Source: Bosea sp. AS-1 (GTDB lineage: Bacteria > Pseudomonadota > Alphaproteobacteria > Rhizobiales > Beijerinckiaceae). From it: 64,000 bases of DNA. Position 1 is the stretch's first letter; each line of letters starts with the position of its first letter. Below the pieces are notes generated by a model. It saw nothing but the letters and a program-made list of their open reading frames with translations, ran no database searches and had not been told where the DNA came from. This document shows, in pieces, positions 3,424-17,600 of the stretch. The stretch spans positions 2,948,501 to 3,012,500 of the forward strand of contig NZ_CP022372.1 of the NCBI RefSeq assembly GCF_002220095.1, read 5' to 3'. The translations under genes and the position numbers were made by a program.

Positions 3424-3513
3424 GGAAGGGTGGCCGAGTGGTTTAAGGCAGCGGTCTTGAAAACCGCCGTGGGTGCAAGCCCACCGTGGGTTCGAATCCC
3501 ACCCCTTCCGCCA
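3424..3513 (+). tRNA. tRNA-Ser (anticodon TGA)
   Basis: A 90-base class II tRNA. The acceptor stem GGAAGGG (3424-3430) pairs with CCCTTCC (3503-3509), followed by discriminator G and an encoded CCA (3511-3513). The anticodon loop reads CTTGAAA, giving anticodon TGA. The long variable arm and the TTCGAATCC T-loop are present. The 3' end doubles as the attachment site of the adjacent integrative element, which leaves the tRNA intact. Confidence 0.97.
3497..3513 (+). repeat. attL, 17-bp direct repeat within tRNA-Ser
   Basis: The sequence TCCCACCCCTTCCGCCA forms the end of the T-arm, the acceptor strand and the CCA of tRNA-Ser. An identical copy lies at 17584-17600. Integration into tRNA 3' ends with regeneration of the gene is standard for tyrosine integrases. 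Confidence 0.93.
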
Positions 3514-3576
3514 GAAACTCCACCGCTAGATTTAGTCTGTAATTTCAATGTTTTACGAGAGCGCAAAATCAAGGTA

Positions 3577-3644: not shown

Positions 3645-4205
3645 GTGGACGACCGCGAGAAGTTCGCCTGGATGGTAGCTGAGTCGAAAAAGCTCACAGC
3701 GGCCATCGCAATCCCCGACAGCACGATACCCGACATTTACACCGCCCCGTCGGATTGGGAGTTCATCCTTAAAATTGATGCTCTGCTTGAGGCTGCGGTC
3801 AGGATGGTCGTCAAGGCCAACCTTGTCGGCACCAAGCGCATGGACCAAGCTAAAATTGAAGCCTTCATCGACACGCTGGCTATGCGAGGACGCACATCCC
3901 TCCTTTCGCTGCTCGATGCGGCCGGCTGCGATAAGACCGAGATGGCTCTCATCGACGCCGTCAGGCTTCTTCGTAACGGTTTCGCCCACGATATCGTTCA
4001 AGTGCAGAAGTCGCTTATTGAGGTCATCAAGGCGCGCAAGGACAAGACCCAGCTCTTGAAATCGCTTTGTTATATTCAAGAGTATGACGAGGCGAAATTG
4101 ATAAAGATGTACGAAGAGGACGGTCAATTTCTTCGGTTCAGTATCATCCACGGCGCGCTTGTATTTCTGGTCGTGGCCTACCACGGCGCGCTGAAGGAAG
4201 CCTGA
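3645..4205 (+). CDS. Uncharacterised HEPN-like alpha-helical protein
   Basis: The protein has 186 residues and starts at GTG 3645 behind a strong AGGGAGG ribosome site at 3634-3640. The sequence is predicted mostly helical and contains R110-N-G-F-A-H115. This matches the Rx4-6H signature of HEPN domains, where Arg and His form the RNase active site in many toxin and abortive-infection proteins. No partner nucleotidyltransferase (MNT) is encoded next to it. It is the first gene inside attL and one of few plus-strand genes in the element. The DNA is clearly more A/T-rich than the chromosome around it. It may be an RNase effector, a DUF4145-like accessory protein, or something else. The domain call rests on one motif and the helical pattern. 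Confidence 0.55.
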   Translation: MDDREKFAWMVAESKKLTAAIAIPDSTIPDIYTAPSDWEFILKIDALLEAAVRMVVKANLVGTKRMDQAKIEAFIDTLAMRGRTSLLSLLDAAGCDKTEMALIDAVRLLRNGFAHDIVQVQKSLIEVIKARKDKTQLLKSLCYIQEYDEAKLIKMYEEDGQFLRFSIIHGALVFLVVAYHGALKEA

Positions 4206-4455: not shown

Positions 4456-7400
4456 TCAAGCCGCCCGGCGCAACTGGTAGCTATGCCCATCCCGAGACGA
4501 GGCGAAGCCCATGCGCACCAGAGAGGTGAGCGTCGCGCGGACGTGCGGCTCGATGCGCTTGCCCTGCCGGAACCCGGCCGCCACGGCGCTCGCTTCCACC
4601 GTGCCCTGGGTGCTCGCGAGGGCGGCCATCACCGCCGCGGTCCGGGCGACTTCGTCGCTCGGGAAGCTGGGCTTCTGCTCCGCTCCGGCGTCCGCCACCA
4701 GCAGCATCTCGCCCTGCGCCTCCGCAAGCTGCGGCGCGGCTTCCTCGGCGATGCCAGCGCGAGCTTTCTGGTAAGCCGGACGGAGCCAGCGGACGATGCC
4801 GCGTCCCTCCTCCGCCGCCCGCGCCTTGTTGAGCGTGACGAGGCGGCCAATCACGTCCTCATCCGACAGATCGGCAGGCCAGCCATAGGCCCCGAAGACG
4901 AGAGTATCGAGCCGGTCATGCGTCTCCTTCAGTATCAGCACGAGCCCTTCGGCGTTGACGCGCTCGTCATCGGCATCGAGCGATGTGCCTACCCGCATCT
5001 TTTCGAGGACGTTGTACATCTGGGTCAGCGTCAGATGCGGGTGCTCCGCCTGCCTAGTCTTGCGATGGGCGTCCAGCTCCTCCGCCACGGCGCGGATGTC
5101 CTCCTGTAGCGCAGCGGGGGCGTCCGGGAAGGGAAAGGGATCGAAAACACGCGACTTCGAATAACGCGGATCGTTGCCGACACCGAGCCAACCACCGGCA
5201 CGCAAGGCCCAGACAACATGAACCCGCGACGACAGGACGCCGAGGTGCCAAGCGTCATCGAACCCCATGCAGACGAGCATGTTGTCGGGAAGGATGGAGG
5301 CGTCGAGGAACTGGAAAACCCGGTGCTTAGCCGTCTCGACGGTGGCAACGTAGCGACCGAGAGGCGCAAGGCATCGGCGGAACTGCGGGTTGTTTTCGCC
5401 AAATAGCCACCACTGCTCTTTCCTGTAAGCGCGGTTGTTCTTGTCGCGTTCCGGTTTCACTTTCGCGAGAACATGCTGGTAGACCTCCGGGAAGCGGGCA
5501 CGGGCCTCTTCTGCCGACAAGCCGAAAAGGTCAATGACCATCACACCACGAGGCCGGCTGGTGAGGTCGCGGCCGTTGCGATAGTGCCGGATGTGCTGCT
5601 CCAGCCCCGACCGCTTGCCGAGCCCCAGAGCAGCAGCCTCTTGCGGCGTGACGATGAAGCCCGAGCCGTGTAGCTTCACTCCAGGCGAGCAGACATAGTC
5701 ATTCGCCCGGAGCGGGCTCGCGTCCGTCACATCCGCGCCGACCGTCAGGTCGGGATTGATGGTCCCCCCCTGTTCAGCGAACTCGACAACCGGCGTGTCA
5801 CTGCCAAGGTCGGCCTCGCGCGTGACCTCCCGTAAGACGCCATCATGCTTCCCGGCCGCAGCCACAGTCATGGCGATGCGGACCGCAGCGGCGTCCTTGG
5901 TCGCCTTGGTCCACGGATGGTCCGAGATGGCCATGAGGAGTGAGACGGGTTTCTTCGCCTTCAGCCGTGCCGCCATGACACGACGAGAGAACTCCTGCGT
6001 GATTGAATTGGTGGTGACGAAGCCGCAGCGCCTGAGCCGTGAACCCTTGCGGGTCAGCAGCTCCGCTGCCCGGTCCCACCAGTACATGACGAAGTCGGCG
6101 CTTTCGTTGATGTGCGGATGCGCGTCCCACAGCGCGCGGGCATAGCCTTCGCCCATCCGTCCACGGATGTCCTTGCCGCCGACGAAGGGCGGGTTCCCGA
6201 CGATGTAGTCCGCCTCCGGCCAAGCCGGGCGGCGCGGGTTCCGGTAGCTGTAAACCTCAACGCGATTGCCCTCCGCGTCGGTGCGTGTCTCAGGCTTGCC
6301 GCTGGCATCGACTACCAGTTCCTTGCCGTCATGGGCCACCACGGCGTCCATCGCCTTGATGGTGCGGAAGTCCTTCAGGATGGGCTCAGCCGGCGCTGCG
6401 CCCTTGGTGCGGAAGTGCCATTGCAAGAAGCCGATCCAGACCACCAACTCGGCGATGGCCGCTGCCCTCGGGTTCACCTCCATGCCGAGGAACTGGTGCG
6501 GGTCGATGGTGTGACCTTCGAGCATCAAGGTCTCTTGCCCGCCGAGGTCCGCCACGGCCTCGAGCACCTCGCCTTCGAGCCGCTTCATCATCTCCATGGC
6601 GACGTACAGGAAGTTGCCAGTGCCGCAGGCCGGGTCCATCACGCGCGTCTCGCAGAGCCGGCCGTGGAACTTCTGCACCTCGGCGAGCGCCCCCTTGGCG
6701 TTGCCGGCCGCGTTCAGGCGCTCGGCCGTGGCACGGACGTGGTCCCATTCCTCCCGCAGTGGCTCCATAAGCGTCGCCACCACCAGCCGCTCGACATAGA
6801 CGCGCGGGGTGTAGTGCGCCCCGAGCTTGCGGCGCTCGGCTGGATCCAGTGCCTGCTCCAGCAAGGCGCCGAAGATGGCCGGTTCGACCTCGCGCCAGTT
6901 CGCCTTCGCCGCCTCCAGCAACTCGCCGATTTCCTCCTTGGGCAGGGGCAGCACCGTCCGGTCCTTGAAAAGGTAGCCGTTGAACCGTTTCACGGTGGCC
7001 TCGATAGCAAACGCGAAGCCGCCCGTGTCCATGGCTTCCCAGAGCTGCCCGACCAAGCGGGGGAAGAGGTCGGGATTGTCCCGGCACCGCGTCAGGATGG
7101 TCTTGAAGCTATCCTTCGGGATCAGCTCTACGTCTTCGGCGAACATCGTGAACAGGCAGCGCATGAGGAAGAGCGCAATCTGTTCCGGGGCATGAACGGC
7201 GCGGCCATCGGCAACCCGGCGCTCTTCGAGGAACTTCGAGACTGCGGCGAGACGGACCGCGATGTCGCGCGTGACCTTGGCTGAGCGTTTGGTCGGATCG
7301 AGGCTGTGAGGGGCGGTCCAGATCAGCTTCAGTCGTTCGCGGATGGCAGGGTTGCGCAAATCCTCCATGGTGACGCGGAAGCCCTGCCGGTCCGGGAATT

Positions 7401-7917
7401 GCGCATAGTTCTTCCCCTGCCCGGAGAAGTCCGCGTAGCATTCGAGGCTATTCCCGACATCACAGACGATCAGGAAGGGCGGCCAACCTTCCGCTGGTGG
7501 CAGGGCCTTGGCATAGTTCTCCGCCTGGCGCCGGGCGTTCTGCATCATGATGTCCCATGAGCGGCCGGTCCCCCGGCGTCCGCGCGGGCTGGGAGAGGCA
7601 GGAGCTTCTGGCAGGAGGTCGCCCTGCGCAGGCATCAACTCCTTGGCACCGCCCTCCAGCCGGCTCTGCTTGGCCTCCAGCACGAAGCAGCCGCGCTTGT
7701 ACAGGTCGATGCGCCCCCGCGCCGTGGAGCCGTCCGGCTCGCGGAAGGTCACGGCCCGCTCGAAGACATAGGCGTTGAGTTCGGTTGCATGTCCGGCCGG
7801 GTCGGGAGACGGGACGCCGATGACGCTGCACAACTCGGTCAGGAAGAGGGCATAGTTCGCCCGCTCCTGCCCACCCGCACCGGCGGTCCAGCGGGCAATG
7901 AAATGCTCAATGTCCAT
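4456..7917 (-). CDS. MmeI-like type IIG/IIL restriction-modification enzyme (class I SAM DNA methyltransferase)
   Basis: A single polypeptide of 1,153 residues. The N-terminal MmeI_N-type domain contains D71 and E81-x-K83 (GRIDLY...VLEAKQ), the PD-ExK nuclease signature. A helical spacer and GAHYT at 367-371 follow. Next comes an adenine methyltransferase core with SAM motif I DPACGTGNF (428-436) and catalytic motif IV NPPF (575-578). The remainder is a target-recognition region and C-terminal helices. Such enzymes methylate one strand of an asymmetric site and cut unmodified DNA at a fixed distance. The start at ATG 7917 (MDIEHF) matches family N-termini; a GTG/ATG extension to 7938 is possible. 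It overlaps the upstream gene by 11 bases. The nuclease and methylase motifs look intact, so it is probably functional. Confidence 0.88.
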   Translation of the reverse strand: MDIEHFIARWTAGAGGQERANYALFLTELCSVIGVPSPDPAGHATELNAYVFERAVTFREPDGSTARGRIDLYKRGCFVLEAKQSRLEGGAKELMPAQGDLLPEAPASPSPRGRRGTGRSWDIMMQNARRQAENYAKALPPAEGWPPFLIVCDVGNSLECYADFSGQGKNYAQFPDRQGFRVTMEDLRNPAIRERLKLIWTAPHSLDPTKRSAKVTRDIAVRLAAVSKFLEERRVADGRAVHAPEQIALFLMRCLFTMFAEDVELIPKDSFKTILTRCRDNPDLFPRLVGQLWEAMDTGGFAFAIEATVKRFNGYLFKDRTVLPLPKEEIGELLEAAKANWREVEPAIFGALLEQALDPAERRKLGAHYTPRVYVERLVVATLMEPLREEWDHVRATAERLNAAGNAKGALAEVQKFHGRLCETRVMDPACGTGNFLYVAMEMMKRLEGEVLEAVADLGGQETLMLEGHTIDPHQFLGMEVNPRAAAIAELVVWIGFLQWHFRTKGAAPAEPILKDFRTIKAMDAVVAHDGKELVVDASGKPETRTDAEGNRVEVYSYRNPRRPAWPEADYIVGNPPFVGGKDIRGRMGEGYARALWDAHPHINESADFVMYWWDRAAELLTRKGSRLRRCGFVTTNSITQEFSRRVMAARLKAKKPVSLLMAISDHPWTKATKDAAAVRIAMTVAAAGKHDGVLREVTREADLGSDTPVVEFAEQGGTINPDLTVGADVTDASPLRANDYVCSPGVKLHGSGFIVTPQEAAALGLGKRSGLEQHIRHYRNGRDLTSRPRGVMVIDLFGLSAEEARARFPEVYQHVLAKVKPERDKNNRAYRKEQWWLFGENNPQFRRCLAPLGRYVATVETAKHRVFQFLDASILPDNMLVCMGFDDAWHLGVLSSRVHVVWALRAGGWLGVGNDPRYSKSRVFDPFPFPDAPAALQEDIRAVAEELDAHRKTRQAEHPHLTLTQMYNVLEKMRVGTSLDADDERVNAEGLVLILKETHDRLDTLVFGAYGWPADLSDEDVIGRLVTLNKARAAEEGRGIVRWLRPAYQKARAGIAEEAAPQLAEAQGEMLLVADAGAEQKPSFPSDEVARTAAVMAALASTQGTVEASAVAAGFRQGKRIEPHVRATLTSLVRMGFASSRDGHSYQLRRAA

Positions 7918-8383
7918 GATCGCGATGCGATGCCCCAATCCCCGGCGGAACCGTAGCTATCCCGTCGTGGCGGAGCAACCAGAGGAGCACAGGTCGAGGC
8001 GTTGCCGAATAGTAGGCCGCAATACTAGGCGCTATATCCGACAAGGACAGGGCCGCGAATGCGAGGCGCCAGCTGCGCTTAGCGTTCCGCACGGTGCCGT
8101 TAGTGGTCCCCGAGACCAGCCGCAGGTTCTCCCGAAACAGGTTGAGCGGGTCGCCGTCCGCCAGCTCGATCATCTCACCGTCGCCAAGCCGCTTCAGCAG
8201 CAGCACAACAGGGAAGTGCTCCCCGGTAAATGGGCAGGTGATGTTGACCCGCCCGGTCGCGTTGCCGATGCGCCAGTGCGTGGCGTCGGGGTAGCCTAAG
8301 GCCAGCAGGGCGTCATAGTCGGCGGACGTGATGCTGACCGTGCGCAGCTCTCCGGTGGGATGCACGGCGATATGAAGTTGCAT
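7907..8383 (-). CDS. Hypothetical protein with an HNH/AP2-homing-endonuclease-like DGDPLNL motif
   Basis: The protein has 158 residues. The central part reads ELADGDPLNLFRENLRLV, close to the D-x-x-N-G-D-x-x-N-x-R-x-N-L signature of phage HNH/AP2-type proteins, but the usual His-His start of an HNH metal site is not obvious. A second element protein (11961-12284) carries the same DGDPLNL motif. Its 3' end overlaps the start of the MmeI-like gene by 11 bases, so the two are probably translated from one message. It could be a DNA-binding regulator of that gene or a degenerate endonuclease. Function unknown. Confidence 0.6.
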   Translation of the reverse strand: MQLHIAVHPTGELRTVSITSADYDALLALGYPDATHWRIGNATGRVNITCPFTGEHFPVVLLLKRLGDGEMIELADGDPLNLFRENLRLVSGTTNGTVRNAKRSWRLAFAALSLSDIAPSIAAYYSATPRPVLLWLLRHDGIATVPPGIGASHRDHGH

Positions 8384-11108: not shown

Positions 11109-11143
11109 GGTGTCCTCCTGACGATGTGGGATGCGGATTGCTG

Positions 11144-11197
11144 GAGTCTGGAGTCGGGTACAGCCGGGTTCGTGGGGCTGTCCGCTGCATGGGTACC
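11144..11197 (-). promoter_or_regulatory. Duplicated leader element, copy 1
   Basis: These 54 bases differ from copy 2 (11877-11929) by two substitutions and one inserted base. In the minus-strand transcript the element would lie 35-90 nt upstream of the 10668-11108 gene. It contains the inverted repeat ACAGCC/GGCTGT. The conserved position before two unrelated genes suggests a shared promoter/operator or an RNA regulatory element. Confidence 0.6.
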
Positions 11198-11859: not shown

Positions 11860-11876
11860 TGCGATGTCGTTCTTTC

Positions 11877-11929
11877 GAGTCTGGAGCTGGGTACAGCCGG
11901 GTTCGTGGGGCTGTCCGCTGATGGGTACC
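11877..11929 (-). promoter_or_regulatory. Duplicated leader element, copy 2
   Basis: This is the second copy of the element at 11144-11197, ending 17 bases before the ATG at 11859. It holds the same ACAGCC/GGCTGT inverted repeat. See copy 1 for interpretation. Confidence 0.6.
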
Positions 11930-12325: not shown

Positions 12326-12590
12326 GGAGGCGCAACTCCATGTGCGCCAGAAGAAAGATACCCGCTCGGAAACGGGCGCTACTTTATCGAAGGTGAGGGG
12401 TAATCGACGGCGTCTTGGTGAGGGGAAATCGATCCGACGCCCCCGACAGGGGCCAGATGGCTGCGGAGGCGCAACTCCACATGCGGCAGAACAAAGATAC
12501 CCGGCCGGAGCCGCGTGCCTGTTTCCTAGGGTGGGGGGCAATCGATCCGCGCCCCCTTTTGCTAGGGTGGGCCTTAATCGATCCGATGCC
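12326..12590. repeat. Iteron-like repeat region without genes
   Basis: Two repeat families fill this gap (the gene-free stretch is 12285-12590). Family A is GGAGGCGCAACTCCA plus about 24 further conserved bases, at 12326 and 12465. Family B begins GGTGRGGG and continues into AATCGATCCG-type sequence ending in GCCC, at 12392, 12417, 12530 and 12566. The first B copy is degenerate (AATCGACGGCG). Iteron-like arrays of this kind are known as binding sites for replication initiators or repressors. The adjacent MarR-like gene starts far away but ends at this array. Confidence 0.6.
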
Positions 12591-13025: not shown

Positions 13026-13649
13026 CTACGCCGATACCTGGGCCACCTCTTTCGCAATCTTCGCCACCTGCCCCCGACTGCACCCCGTGATGGCCTGCAC
13101 CCTGGCCCACGACATGCCAGCCCTGAGCAAGGAGGCGATGTTGTCGTTGCGCTCTACATTCACCGGACGGCCCTTATACCTCCCCTCGGCCTTCGCCTTG
13201 GCCTGCCCTTGAGCCTGCCTGCGGCGGCGGTCCTCGTAGTCCTTGCGGGCGATGGCGGCGAGCATGTCCAGCATCATCGCGTTGATGGCATCGAACATCC
13301 GCACGGTGAACTCGTCGGCCTTCGGGTCGGCCATGGCCCAGCTCGTGGGCAGGTCTAGCGCCACGACACGAACGTGACGGGCTGCCAGCTCTGCCTTGAG
13401 CTTGGACCAGTCCTCGGCGTTCAGGCGCGACAAGCGGTCCACCTGCTCGATGAGGAGCACGTCTCCGGGCCTGCTATCGGCTAGCAGACGGAACAGCTCC
13501 GGGCGCTTGAGGGAAGCCCCGCTCTCGTTCTCGACATAGGTGGCGGCGATGGCGAGGCCCCGCTCTGCGGCGAATGCCTCAACCTGCTGGCGCGCTCGCG
13601 TAGCGTCCTGCTCTGCGGTGGATGCCCTGAGATAAGCGCGGATGAACAT
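13026..13649 (-). CDS. Serine recombinase (resolvase/invertase family)
   Basis: A 207-residue small serine recombinase. The catalytic Ser10 lies in YLRASTAEQD. The dimer/active-site segment EQVDRLSRL is present, and a C-terminal helix-turn-helix (LLRAGMSWARVQAITGCSRG) would bind the recombination site. The length fits resolvases and invertases rather than large integrases. The upstream region has a duplicated GGATAGGTC (13673 and 13702), a candidate site or operator. Role in the element: cointegrate resolution, inversion or dimer resolution, not distinguishable here. Confidence 0.88.
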   Translation of the reverse strand: MFIRAYLRASTAEQDATRARQQVEAFAAERGLAIAATYVENESGASLKRPELFRLLADSRPGDVLLIEQVDRLSRLNAEDWSKLKAELAARHVRVVALDLPTSWAMADPKADEFTVRMFDAINAMMLDMLAAIARKDYEDRRRRQAQGQAKAKAEGRYKGRPVNVERNDNIASLLRAGMSWARVQAITGCSRGQVAKIAKEVAQVSA

Positions 13650-13710: not shown

Positions 13711-13823
13711 AATAAGTCTTTTTCAGGCTCCTCCGGGCTGGTCCTGTACGGGCGTACAAAAATGACCGGCAACTAGGCACAGCACGCCAGACCCCGCCAG
13801 CGTGGCGGATGAAAGGAACCATC

Positions 13824-14447
13824 ATGACCGACAAGCCGACCACCTCGACCTTCAACTTCAATGCCCTGATCGAGGGCGTTCAGTGCAGCCACAGCGTCCG
13901 CGCCGTGACCCTTGAGGGGAGCCCGTGGTTCGTGGCGCAGGACGCCTGCCGGGTGCTCGGGGCGCACATGCGGATGAAGGACGGCTACGAGGAACTGCAC
14001 ACGGGCCAGCTTAAGAAGCTGATCGGGGCTGACCAGTTCACCCTATATCGGGCAGAGGGGGACAGCCGGCAGCACCTGCTGATTAGCGAGAAGGGTCTCT
14101 ACAAACTCATCGGACGCTCCGATAAGCCGCACGCCAAGCCGTTCCAAGACTGGCTCTTCGGCGAGGTGGTTCCGTCCATCCGCAAGACGGGCGGCTACCA
14201 GCTCGGGGCCGGCGAGACGATGCCCCTTCCGACCAGCTTCACGGACGCCCTGCGGCAGCACGCCAGCGGCACCCGAGCGCCGGGCGAAAGGTGGCCCCCA
14301 AACGTTTCACGGAAGGGGCGGCACGGGGGGAAATCGCGCCGGCTCTTTTATCGATCGTCTCTCGGATTTTTTCGGCAAAACCAAGCGATACCTGTGGCTG
14401 GCGCCGCTCACCCCCTACCGCGCCAGCTGACCCTAAGGCATATCTGA
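13824..14447 (+). CDS. BRO-family phage antirepressor, C-terminus degenerate
   Basis: The start is ATG 13824 (MTDKPTTS) behind AAAGGA. Residues about 15-125 form a typical BRO-N domain: VRAVTLEGSPWFVAQDACRV, then LISEKGLYKLI and a FQDWLFGEVVPSIRKTGGY end. These domains occur in phage antirepressors that inactivate CI-like repressors. Beyond SFTDALRQ the last roughly 65 residues become Arg/Gly/Pro-rich and unlike any KilA or DNA-binding C-terminus. In the +1 frame a more coding-like stretch runs to a stop at 14428-14430, suggesting a frameshift or deletion. It lies 16 bases upstream of the Pycsar effector. Confidence 0.78.
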   Translation: MTDKPTTSTFNFNALIEGVQCSHSVRAVTLEGSPWFVAQDACRVLGAHMRMKDGYEELHTGQLKKLIGADQFTLYRAEGDSRQHLLISEKGLYKLIGRSDKPHAKPFQDWLFGEVVPSIRKTGGYQLGAGETMPLPTSFTDALRQHASGTRAPGERWPPNVSRKGRHGGKSRRLFYRSSLGFFRQNQAIPVAGAAHPLPRQLTLRHI

Positions 14448-14463: not shown

Positions 14464-15033
14464 ATGGCCAAAAACGACCAACAGGAAGCGTTCGAACGGG
14501 TTCTGACGTCAACGCTGGTGCGCGTTACCGAATTTCTGAAGTTCGCGGAGGCGAAGAATGCGGCGCTCCTGACCTTCGCCTCAGCCTGGATACTCGCATC
14601 GATAAATCTGTTGAACGGCACGAACTTGCTACCTAGCAATTGGAAGTGGGCCATAGCCGCTGCTCTCCCCTTGTTCGTGTCCGGCGCATTGGTTGGCATC
14701 GTCTCCTTTCTTCCAAAGACGCTTTTGTCGGGTTTTCACCACGACCCTGAGCAGGACAAATCGCTGCTATATTTCGGAGACGCAGCGACATTCGCACCCG
14801 CCGCGTACAAAGAGCGGATTAGGACACGGTATTTTCCGCCCGACGACCAGTCGGCCACACAAAGTTACCTTGACGATTTGTCAGTTCAAATTGCGGTCAA
14901 CAGCAAGATCACTCGTCGCAAATTGAGGTTCTTCAATGCGGGTGCAGGCTTGGTCCTCGCCGCGCTGGCCATACTGGCCATCCCATCAGCAAATACGCTG
15001 TGGTCGTTGGTGACCGCTTGCGGAGCAAGATGA
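14464..15033 (+). CDS. Pycsar effector, PycTM-type membrane protein
   Basis: The protein has 189 residues. The N-terminal segment EFLKFAEAKNAALLTFASAW matches the conserved W/F-x-K-x-A-(D/E)-x-K opening of Pycsar transmembrane effectors. Membrane segments are predicted at about 32-50, 62-84 and 157-180. Between them is a cytosolic part with LLYFGDAATF, Y115 and YLDDLSVQIAVNS, also typical of the family. In characterised Pycsar systems such proteins respond to cCMP or cUMP and damage the inner membrane, stopping phage growth by cell death or arrest. The stop overlaps the start of the cyclase gene, indicating translational coupling. Here the effector comes first. Family assignment is by recognised pattern. 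Confidence 0.85.
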   Translation: MAKNDQQEAFERVLTSTLVRVTEFLKFAEAKNAALLTFASAWILASINLLNGTNLLPSNWKWAIAAALPLFVSGALVGIVSFLPKTLLSGFHHDPEQDKSLLYFGDAATFAPAAYKERIRTRYFPPDDQSATQSYLDDLSVQIAVNSKITRRKLRFFNAGAGLVLAALAILAIPSANTLWSLVTACGAR

Positions 15034-16028
15034 TGTCGATTGCCAACTTGCGTGATGGTGTCGTTGACGAGGTTTCGGCTATCCTCGCGGCCGACTTCGA
15101 AATTGACGTGGTCAACACTACCACGGTGCCGCGTTCGTCGGATGCCAGCATCACCTTCCCGAACTTGGACACCAAAAGGCAGGGTGCCAAGCTCATCAAT
15201 ACCTGCGTATTATATATCGATATCCGCAGGTCTACGGAATTAAACCTGCGCCATAAACCAAAGACCGTTGCCAAGCTGTACTCGGCCTTTGTTCGGGCCA
15301 TGACCCGGTGCGCGCGGCATCACAAGGGCCACGTCAGGGGCATTATCGGTGACCGAGTGATGGTCATCTTCGACCAGCAAGACGCCTTCGTGAATGCGGT
15401 CGAGTGCGCCATTTCAATGAATTCTGTGTCGCAGTTCGTCATCAACGAGCACTTCAAGCACAACGAGGTCGAGTGCGGCATAGGGATCGACGCAGGCAAC
15501 ATGCTCGCGACCAAGACGGGGCTGCGCCGGAAAGGGGAAGAGCTCCACGCCTATCGCAATCTGGTGTGGCTCGGGCGTCCCGCGAATGTCGCAAGCAAGC
15601 TCACCGATCTTGCTAATAAACCAGAGAGTGCAGTCACCTATCCGATGGTAAGGGCTGCGTTTGCGCCAGCCGCCAATTCGCTTGGCGCTGCGTTCCAGCT
15701 TGGTCTCGGGCCTTCGCAAAATTGGGTGTGGCGGGACATCAACCCGTTCAATTTCCTCGACCTGCTGACGACCGACCACGTCAGCAGGCAGTTGGTCTAC
15801 CCGGACCCCAATTTCCGCGCAATGCACACCGTACCGTTCAAATCGGTTAGCGTGCCCAAGACCGCTCCTATCCTTATGACCGAGATCGTGTGGGATGGGT
15901 TCAGGGCTGCAAAACCCACTTCCGCTGTGGTCACTGGCCCTATGTTCCGCGAAGTGAAGCTGTCGGTGCCGGGGTACAAGGGGAGGGTCTACTCCGGCGA
16001 CGTCCATTTTACCGACTTCAAAGCCTGA
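15030..16028 (+). CDS. Pycsar pyrimidine cyclase, class III nucleotide cyclase (PycC-like)
   Basis: The protein has 332 residues; ATG 15030 overlaps the effector stop (ATGA). A GTG at 15000 lies inside the effector and is unlikely. A class III cyclase domain spans about residues 55-200. First metal Asp64 is in VLYIDIRRST, second metal Asp108 is in GIIGDRVMVIF, and the G-x-x-x-N-x-A motif is GRPANVASKL (182-191). The C-terminal 130 residues are outside the cyclase core. With the adjacent PycTM-type effector it matches the known Pycsar architecture, in which infection triggers cCMP or cUMP synthesis. Which nucleotide is made cannot be read from the sequence with confidence. Confidence 0.86.
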   Translation: MMSIANLRDGVVDEVSAILAADFEIDVVNTTTVPRSSDASITFPNLDTKRQGAKLINTCVLYIDIRRSTELNLRHKPKTVAKLYSAFVRAMTRCARHHKGHVRGIIGDRVMVIFDQQDAFVNAVECAISMNSVSQFVINEHFKHNEVECGIGIDAGNMLATKTGLRRKGEELHAYRNLVWLGRPANVASKLTDLANKPESAVTYPMVRAAFAPAANSLGAAFQLGLGPSQNWVWRDINPFNFLDLLTTDHVSRQLVYPDPNFRAMHTVPFKSVSVPKTAPILMTEIVWDGFRAAKPTSAVVTGPMFREVKLSVPGYKGRVYSGDVHFTDFKA

Positions 16029-16050: not shown

Positions 16051-17463
16051 TCAACCCGGCAGCTTCACGGCCCGCACACAGGCCCTTTTGGCATCCTCCG
16101 AAGCAGCACCCGCATAGGTGCTCATGGTAAGCCCCAGCGGCAGCTTGATGCCCTCTAGGCTCGCATTCTCGACCGCGTGCCCGACCACCTCCGCAATCGT
16201 CCAGACGCTGTAGCCCTGCACACCTTTGACAAGCGCATCGGCGGCCTTGCGGACGAACCATCGCCGGAACGAATGGAAGTCGGTGTTGCTCTGCCTCTGG
16301 CCCGGCAACGGCCTCTCGTCCACCTTCAAGCGGCGGCGTTCGCGGGTGAAAACCTGAGACACGGGAGCGCCCCGGCCCCGCTTAGAGTCGGCCTTCTGCT
16401 CGGGCAACTCATGGAACAGATACTCGCCCGGCTTCTTGTCCTTGATGCGCGTCGCGATGATGCCCGCAAGATCGGGATGGACGGGCACGGTGCGAAGGAA
16501 GCCGGCTGTGGTTTTCGATTTGGAAATGGCGAAACCGCTGTCGCCCACGTCCCGCACCCGTAGGCCGGCTATCTCGTCCACCCGCATACCCGTCAGTGCG
16601 GCCATCTGGCAGAAGTCAGGCAGCACGGTCGCCACGGAACCCTTGAGGACAACAGGACCACGCCCCACGCCAGCCAACAGGGTCTTCACTTCGTCGTCCG
16701 TGAAGGGTCGCTTAGCTGCGCTCTGCGGTCCCTCTTGTAGATCAGCCTCAGACCGCGCGGCGCGCCTCTCGATGCTCTGCCCGGTCCAAGGATTATCGGC
16801 CTGGCCCCAGCGCTTGCCGAGATAGGTCCAGTACGAAGTCAGGCAGGAGATGGCCCGGTTGGCGCTCTTGGGGTGCATGTTGGTGACGATCATCCGCTCA
16901 TGGATGAACTCGCCAGCTATCCGCCGCGTCACGGCCTCTACCGTCACGGTCTGGCCCTTCGCCTCCAGCCAGTCCGCCAGCCATCCCACCGAGCGGGTGA
17001 TGTCGTCGGAGTAGCCCTTGGCGAACCGCTTCTCGCGAAAGAACGGCGCTAGGGCGAGCTTGAGCGGCGTCTGCTGTCCTGCTGCCACGGCGGCGAAGGA
17101 CTGGGCTGCGTGCAGGCCTGAGGCCCGCCTAATGGTGTCCAAACGGGCGTCGAGGGCATAGAGCGCATCGCCGTTGTCATCGTTGGCGACAGCCTCGCGC
17201 CAGTCCATGGCTTCCTGCGTGAAGTCCTGAAAGATGATCGGGAGCTTGCCCTTCGGGTTCTTGATGCGGTCCCGAAGGCGCTTGATGACGTCCACCTTCT
17301 CTCGCTCCGCCTCCAGCGGGTCGGTGGTCGTCAGGACTTCGCGGAGCTTCGAGGCTCCCACAGCGGCCTTCCGGCTGGGCGGCACAGTGACAGATACGCG
17401 GATGCTACTGCCGTGCCATTCGAGGTTCCTACCGAGTTTCTTGAGACGAGGTTTGCGAGCCAT
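16051..17463 (-). CDS. Tyrosine-type integrase of the tRNA-Ser element
   Basis: A 470-residue site-specific recombinase starting at ATG 17463 (MARKPRLKKL). A SAM-like core-binding domain lies at about 130-225 and a catalytic domain at about 250-465. The catalytic set is complete: R294 (TGMRVDEIAGL), Lys near 316-318, H397-x-x-R400 (HSFRR), H429 (VVGHAVEN) and nucleophile Y450 (MSTYAG). It lies between attR and the Pycsar genes and is convergent with the cyclase (22-base gap). It should catalyse integration into the tRNA-Ser 3' end. No excisionase gene is recognised. Confidence 0.93.
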   Translation of the reverse strand: MARKPRLKKLGRNLEWHGSSIRVSVTVPPSRKAAVGASKLREVLTTTDPLEAEREKVDVIKRLRDRIKNPKGKLPIIFQDFTQEAMDWREAVANDDNGDALYALDARLDTIRRASGLHAAQSFAAVAAGQQTPLKLALAPFFREKRFAKGYSDDITRSVGWLADWLEAKGQTVTVEAVTRRIAGEFIHERMIVTNMHPKSANRAISCLTSYWTYLGKRWGQADNPWTGQSIERRAARSEADLQEGPQSAAKRPFTDDEVKTLLAGVGRGPVVLKGSVATVLPDFCQMAALTGMRVDEIAGLRVRDVGDSGFAISKSKTTAGFLRTVPVHPDLAGIIATRIKDKKPGEYLFHELPEQKADSKRGRGAPVSQVFTRERRRLKVDERPLPGQRQSNTDFHSFRRWFVRKAADALVKGVQGYSVWTIAEVVGHAVENASLEGIKLPLGLTMSTYAGAASEDAKRACVRAVKLPG

Positions 17464-17583
17464 GGATTGACGCTTCCCGGAGCATTGTGGACCCACGAAT
17501 GAGTCAAAAATGCCCCCATGGCAAGCCTTGCCGACTCAACGAGTTAGGCCTTATCAAGGCGTTGGCGGCAGGGTGGAATATCG

Positions 17584-17600
17584 TCCCACCCCTTCCGCCA
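17584..17600 (+). repeat. attR, 17-bp direct repeat
   Basis: An exact copy of 3497-3513, lying 120 bases beyond the integrase start. No other part of the tRNA is duplicated here, so this is the distal attachment site rather than a second tRNA. Confidence 0.93.

What the first reader, a model, noticed from the sequence alone, without database searches (positions are those of the whole stretch)
14464..16028. Pycsar-type anti-phage module inside a tRNA-Ser island
A three-helix membrane protein with the PycTM signature overlaps by four bases a class III nucleotide cyclase with both metal aspartates (D64, D108). No other cyclic-nucleotide gene is nearby. The two proteins match the known Pycsar layout, in which cCMP or cUMP made on infection activates a membrane effector. 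The reversed gene order, a long C-terminal extension of the cyclase and the position next to an integrase and a truncated antirepressor make this a useful new example.
Basis: partly seen in the sequence, partly recalled or inferred. Interest (0 to 1): 0.88.

Follow-up and report, generated by a model that had tools for sequence, protein, structure and literature searches.

The report
Pycsar anti-phage pair on mobile element
This two-gene pair is most likely a known type of bacterial anti-phage alarm, a cyclase that makes a small nucleotide signal and a membrane protein that answers it, carried on a mobile DNA element; it is a fairly ordinary example from a rare, slightly unusual branch of that family.

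Summary
Window 14464-15033 (+) encodes a 189-aa three-helix membrane protein matching Pfam PycTM and PADLOC effector/PycTM models. It overlaps by four bases (ATGA) a 332-aa class III cyclase (15030-16028, +) with D64 and D108, matching PADLOC PycC (4e-41). The best solved structure, by sequence and by fold, is BcPycC, a cUMP synthase. The pair lies in a putative 14.1-kb element between two copies of the 17-bp end of tRNA-Ser, beside a tyrosine integrase; the element also carries an MmeI-like type IIG restriction enzyme. Details corrected: effector-first order is usual in this branch (10 of 14 loci) and occurs in other Pycsar loci; the 'C-terminal extension' is best read as an insertion (62-81 residues in the aligned columns) inside the cyclase fold, found in 14 of 14 relatives; BcPycC's UTP-recognition Asp94 is Ile/Val in 14 of 14. 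The branch is rare (1 of 67 congeners) yet occurs in Alphaproteobacteria, Bacilli, Deinococcus and viral contigs. Best reading: a genuine Pycsar system, probably cUMP; product and anti-phage activity are untested. New member of a known kind, modest interest.

The parts
14464..15033 (+). PycTM-family membrane effector, 189 aa, three predicted membrane helices
   Evidence: Pfam PF18967 1.7e-8; PADLOC 9.3e-58 and 1e-23; helices
15030..15033 (+). ATGA four-base overlap of effector stop and cyclase start
15030..16028 (+). PycC-type class III nucleotide cyclase, 332 aa
   Evidence: PADLOC PycC 4.1e-41 over residues 7-203; 7r65 3.8e-15; Foldseek 1e-14
15219..15221 (+). codon of metal-binding D64
   Evidence: D in 14 of 14 branch members
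15351..15353 (+). codon of metal-binding D108
   Evidence: D in 14 of 14 branch members
15621..15863 (+). branch-specific insertion, residues 198-278, before the last strands of the cyclase fold
   Evidence: present in 14 of 14 relatives, mean pairwise identity 20.2% against 62.3% in the core; profile test of the tail
13809..14447 (+). Bro-N antirepressor-like gene just upstream (context)
   Evidence: Pfam Bro-N 6.9e-15; PHROG antirepressors
13026..13649 (-). serine resolvase-like recombinase (context)
   Evidence: Pfam Resolvase 1.4e-23
16051..17496 (-). tyrosine integrase beside the right repeat (context)
   Evidence: PHROG integrase 4.3e-23; Pfam Phage_integrase 25 bits, just under its cut-off of 27.1
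3424..3513 (+). tRNA-Ser (TGA), likely integration site
   Evidence: ARAGORN
3497..3513 (+). 17-bp direct repeat, left copy (attL-like)
17584..17600 (+). 17-bp direct repeat, right copy (attR-like)
4456..7938 (-). MmeI-like type IIG restriction enzyme-methyltransferase on the same element (context)
   Evidence: PADLOC 1611 bits; Pfam MmeI domains

Best explanation
This is a Pycsar abortive-infection module. Phage infection switches on the cyclase, which cyclises a pyrimidine nucleotide (most likely UTP to cUMP) at a homodimer interface using D64 and D108. The signal is received by the 189-aa PycTM protein in the membrane, which then breaks the membrane barrier so that the infected cell stops before phage is released. 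The translationally coupled pair rides on a tRNA-Ser element together with a restriction enzyme. Shown here: both families, the cyclase fold, conserved pairing, metal aspartates, absence of the adenylate-cyclase pocket residues, the bounding repeat. Inferred from the known family: trigger by infection, dimerisation, product, signal binding, membrane damage.
For: PycTM and PycC profiles (7 of 7 members of each alignment). BcPycC first by sequence and fold. A PycTM-family match within about 1.1 kb of the cyclase in 14 of 14 distinct loci, in 10 directly upstream on the same strand. Catalytic and PycC-type residues invariant: D64, D108, R109, V179, W180, N186 in 14 of 14. Low GC (54.7 and 57.0% against 64.6%), 17-bp repeat, integrase. 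Four of five viral-contig relatives lie beside phage structural genes, terminase or integrase.
Against: No product, binding or phage test exists for any of the 14. Asp94 of BcPycC, named as UTP-recognising in PMC11224242, is Ile or Val in 14 of 14. NCBIfam has no match to the cyclase at E<=1, and only chance-level ones to the effector. The effector model finds no solved structure at E<=0.001. In 4 of 14 loci the effector is divergent (L010, L013), short (L007, 118 aa) or short and beyond a transposase (L011, 110 aa), and three of these match the window effector only at E 0.0002-0.0013.
Confidence: 0.83

Rival explanations
1. A Pycsar system that works as above but whose signal is cCMP, or another nucleotide, rather than cUMP.
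For: The UTP-recognition Asp94 of BcPycC is Ile/Val in 14 of 14 branch members, while 9 of 9 clade-B-like rows keep Asp.
Against: The cCMP-type residues R142 and Q144 of EaPycC (PMC11224242) are also absent (G/N and I/V here); Tyr/Phe at D64-2 and R109 match BcPycC; BcPycC is the closest solved structure.
Confidence: 0.22
2. An ordinary cyclic-AMP signalling cyclase with a membrane receptor, not a defence system.
For: Pfam Guanylate_cyc matches the cyclase (2.6e-9). In another genome (L074) a cyclase with AC-type pocket residues sits next to a PF18967 protein.
Against: Lys and Thr of the 8 AC-like rows are absent in 14 of 14; PycC profiles score far above; spotty distribution, 1 of 67 congeners; phage, plasmid and island settings.
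Confidence: 0.05
3. A decayed or inactive defence remnant left on the element.
For: It sits beside recombinases and an antirepressor-like gene; two relatives have short effector matches (L007, L011).
Against: Both window ORFs are uninterrupted, of the length of their relatives, and keep the invariant catalytic residues.
Confidence: 0.07

Closest known systems
BcPycC, clade B Pycsar cyclase of Burkholderia cepacia LK29 (PDB 7r65), cUMP
   Same: class III fold (Foldseek E 1e-14, TM 0.79 by target length), metal aspartates, Tyr at D-2, Arg at D+1, L-V-W-x-G-R-x-A-N motif
   Different: 229 residues against 332; Asp94 is Ile106 here; no 198-278 insertion
AnPycC + AnPycTM, clade D Pycsar of Anabaena (PDB 8jsz), cUMP
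   Same: second by sequence and fourth by fold; PycTM-type effector and extra sequence in the C-terminal region (PMC11224242)
   Different: the clade D extra sequence is a zinc ribbon with three Cys and a His; the window insertion has no Cys; pocket residues differ
Plasmid pair of Parageobacillus caldoxylosilyticus (NZ_CP040554, annotated 'Pycsar system effector family protein' and cyclase)
   Same: same long cyclase branch (44.0% identity), same effector-first order
   Different: on a conjugative plasmid; effectors about 30% identical over the matched part
Rhizobium sp. Root1334 pair (L004; L003 has the same match statistics)
   Same: cyclase 65% identical in the best segment, effector first with the same four-base overlap
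   Different: surroundings not analysed

Membership tests
Pycsar | PycC-type pyrimidine cyclase by profile | tested here: met
   PADLOC PycC 4.1e-41; 7 of 7 members of A2
Pycsar | class III metal aspartates present | tested here: met
   D64 and D108, 14 of 14
Pycsar | paired receptor-effector of PycTM or PycTIR type | tested here: met
   Pfam PycTM 1.7e-8; four-base overlap
Pycsar | enzyme makes cUMP or cCMP | not testable with these tools
   pocket not of AC type, but no assay
Pycsar | effector responds to the cyclic pyrimidine and damages the membrane | not testable with these tools
   only predicted helices
Pycsar | protects against phage | not testable with these tools
   mobile and phage settings only
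Clade B PycC (BcPycC type) | UTP-recognition residues Y50, D94, R97 (PMC11224242) | tested here: not met
   Y62 and R109 kept, D94 replaced by I106
Clade D PycC (AnPycC type) | zinc-ribbon cysteines in the C-terminal region; F60, K104, F109 | tested here: not met
   no Cys in residues 198-278; Y62, I106
Clade E PycC (EaPycC type, cCMP) | F100, R142, Q144 (PMC11224242) | tested here: not met
   Y62, G104, I106; phmmer to 8jsf only E 0.029
Clade C PycC | grouping with clade C members of the founding paper | not tested
   founding paper not held; 'clade C' not discussed in the main text of PMC11224242
Housekeeping adenylate cyclase | Lys four before the second metal Asp, and Thr/Asp at the position of V179 (which residues select adenine is recalled) | tested here: not met
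   Lys and Thr in 8 of 8 AC-like rows, of which only CyaB (3r5g) is a named AC; absent in 14 of 14 branch members

The most novel reading that the evidence does not exclude
The window belongs to a separate PycC branch with its own base pocket (Asp94 to Ile/Val) and a fast-changing insertion near the end of the cyclase fold that senses the phage or gates the enzyme, with a product that may not be cUMP; the branch travels on prophages, plasmids and tRNA elements.
Probability: 0.25. Interest if true: 0.5.

Novelty: new member of a known kind. Interest (0 to 1): 0.3.

Why it matters
The system type is known. What it adds is a rare branch of Pycsar cyclases, seen in several phyla, with a shared insertion and a changed base pocket. 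That gives a concrete set of 14 sequences for asking what decides cUMP against cCMP and where the phage trigger is sensed.

Tried and rejected
Housekeeping adenylate cyclase: rejected on pocket residues, profiles, pairing and distribution. Zinc ribbon in the extra region: rejected for the window, no Cys in residues 198-278; three relatives have one or two Cys there. Added C-terminal domain: set aside for an insertion, because the last part of the branch resembles the tails of short cyclases (hhalign E 6.5e-5 for a single comparison, probability 64%) and the insertion does not (0.8%), and because Foldseek runs the 229-residue 7r65 along the whole model in 332 columns. Against this: MAFFT itself laid 33-36 residues of six short cyclases into the same columns, so the border is not exact. 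Fold of the insertion: model pLDDT about 39-62 per 10-residue block between residues 201 and 280, so no fold claimed. Effector fold search: best E 0.08, BAR-like helices, uninformative. Empty site: in 5 congeners similarity to the window stops at 3513-3517, but the right flank lies on other contigs or far away in the congeners where it was found, so no empty site was shown. Genome-contig scan: 2 loci only. Phage records: 1 of 50,697, covering half the query.

Full report
Observation. Both frames exist as described. The effector (14464-15033, 189 aa) ends in a TGA that overlaps the ATG of the cyclase (15030-16028, 332 aa) by four bases. D64 and D108 are correct when counted from that ATG. The effector shows three hydrophobic stretches and three long helices in a model of mean pLDDT 79.9.

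Families. Pfam PycTM (PF18967) matches the effector at 35.3 bits, cut-off 27.2. PADLOC gives 9.3e-58 to a 2TM effector model and 1e-23 to PycTM; the cyclase gives 4.1e-41 to PycC over residues 7-203. All 7 members of A2 and all 7 of A3 match the same PycC and effector/PycTM models. NCBIfam gives nothing for the cyclase at E<=1 and only weak matches (best 0.03) for the effector. Among solved structures BcPycC (7r65), a cUMP synthase, is first by sequence (3.8e-15) and by Foldseek (E 1e-14, TM 0.79 by target length, first of 184 with E<=0.001). AnPycC (8jsz) is second by sequence and fourth by fold. Mean pLDDT of the cyclase model is 72.1.

Relatives. L003 and L004 (Rhizobiales) show 65% identity in the best segment and the same match statistics, and are counted once. 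Among 49 plasmid records with a match, 9 cover at least 80% of the query: Phyllobacterium 1, Parageobacillus 1, Paenibacillus 2, Cytobacillus 4, Deinococcus 1; I fetched 8 of these 9 (not H7). Viral contigs gave 5 loci, four matching nearly the whole query and L068 over residues 30-197, though its frame is 313 aa. Distribution: 1 of 67 genomes of the genus, 1 of 385 of the class, each time the window's own. With a profile, 25 of 398 genomes of the phylum matched at 1e-10, but only the window's own over nearly the whole model; the others had at most 59.3 bits over parts. The effector alone matched in 2 of 385 genomes of the class, and the PycTM family in 24 of 378 of the phylum.

Pairing and order. 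I counted 14 distinct loci: window, L003, L007, L008, L009, L010, L011, L012, L013 and L064-L068; near-copies L004 and L014 and the unfetched H7 were left out. An effector lies directly upstream on the same strand in 10 (window, L003, L008, L009, L012, L064-L068). It is divergent upstream in 2 (L010, L013). A 118-aa match lies upstream in L007, and a 110-aa match lies downstream past a transposase in L011. The matches of L010, L013 and L011 to the window effector are weak (E 0.0002-0.0013); L013 and L011 are annotated as Pycsar effectors, L010 and L007 as hypothetical. Outside the branch, effector-first order is seen in L083, L086, L091 and L102, cyclase-first in L074 and L100. Of the 25 PycTM loci, only 5 (window included) showed a cyclase in flanks of about 1.5 kb, and my search models lean to this branch, so these are examples, not frequencies. 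The reversed order is therefore not special.

The extra sequence. Branch members are 313-332 aa; six short cyclases measured are 230-250 aa. Mean pairwise identity among the 14 is 62.3% in the core (50-197), 20.2% in 198-278, 52.3% in 279-290 and 32.5% in 291-332. The last part resembles the tails of eight short cyclases (E 6.5e-5 for one comparison, probability 64%), the insertion does not. So the extra sequence is best read as an insertion, 62-81 residues in the aligned columns, in the C-terminal region where clade D carries a zinc ribbon and clade E a Y-shaped beta structure (PMC11224242). W234 is kept in 14 of 14. Its role is unknown; fast change would fit a sensor or a loosely constrained cap.

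Pocket. The 8 AC-like rows (CyaB 3r5g and seven loci that I labelled so) all have Lys at D108-4 and Thr at the position of V179; none of 14 branch members does. The branch has Tyr (12) or Phe (2) at D64-2, Arg at D108+1 (14), Asn/Gly (9/5) at D108-4, and Ile (12) or Val (2) where BcPycC has Asp94; 9 of 9 clade-B-like rows keep that Asp. This fits a pyrimidine cyclase but leaves the base open. The tree keeps the 14 together with weak to moderate support (84/23; 86% of 200 bootstrap trees) beside the BcPycC group; several rows have long branches and unsure places.

Element. The 17-bp end of tRNA-Ser (3497-3513) recurs exactly at 17584-17600, next to an integrase. In 5 of 5 congeners examined downstream of this tRNA, similarity to the window stops at 3513-3517. 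No empty site was shown. Between the repeats lie an MmeI-like type IIG enzyme, a resolvase and a Bro-N gene and a MarR-like gene. The effector has 54.7% GC and the cyclase 57.0% in a 64.6% window; 4 of the 8 lowest 1-kb steps fall on this operon, 3 around the tRNA end. Among the viral-contig relatives, 4 of 5 (L064-L067) have terminase, portal, capsid or integrase genes nearby; for L068 only one neighbour was tested, a radical SAM protein.

Verdict. A well-supported Pycsar locus of the PycTM type on a putative mobile element. The kind is known, and public annotation already names relatives of the effector 'Pycsar system effector family protein'. Literature: searches, seen as listings. Of PMC11224242 I read the abstract, introduction, the EaPycC section and the first of two parts of the AnPycC section and passages; of PMC9117128 passages only. 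The founding paper is not held, so whether this branch is its clade C is open, and I do not claim that the branch is undescribed.

Noticed in passing
window 4456-7938 (-): MmeI-like type IIG restriction enzyme-methyltransferase on the same element as the Pycsar pair (PADLOC 1611 bits), so the element carries at least two defence-type systems.
   Followed up: partly
window 3645-4205 (+): 186-aa ORF just inside the left repeat with a weak HEPN-type Pfam match (E 0.0057, below its cut-off) and a weak PglX match.
   Followed up: no
L074 1450-3304 (-): A 428-aa cyclase with AC-type pocket residues (Lys, Thr) directly upstream of a PF18967 (PycTM) protein, a pairing that may use a purine signal.
   Followed up: no
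L100 2468-4469; L101 1765-3196: Two adjacent cyclase genes in tandem: in Mycolicibacterium arabiense followed by an annotated Pycsar effector, in Arthrobacter by a hypothetical protein.
   Followed up: no
window 11127-11187 and 11860-11920; 12326-12379 and 12465-12518: Two pairs of imperfect direct repeats (84% and 81% identical) inside the element.
   Followed up: no
L103 2426-3850: A Ruminococcus phage record carries a PycC-like cyclase stretch (31.9% identity over half the query) followed by a 557-bp hypothetical gene.
   Followed up: partly
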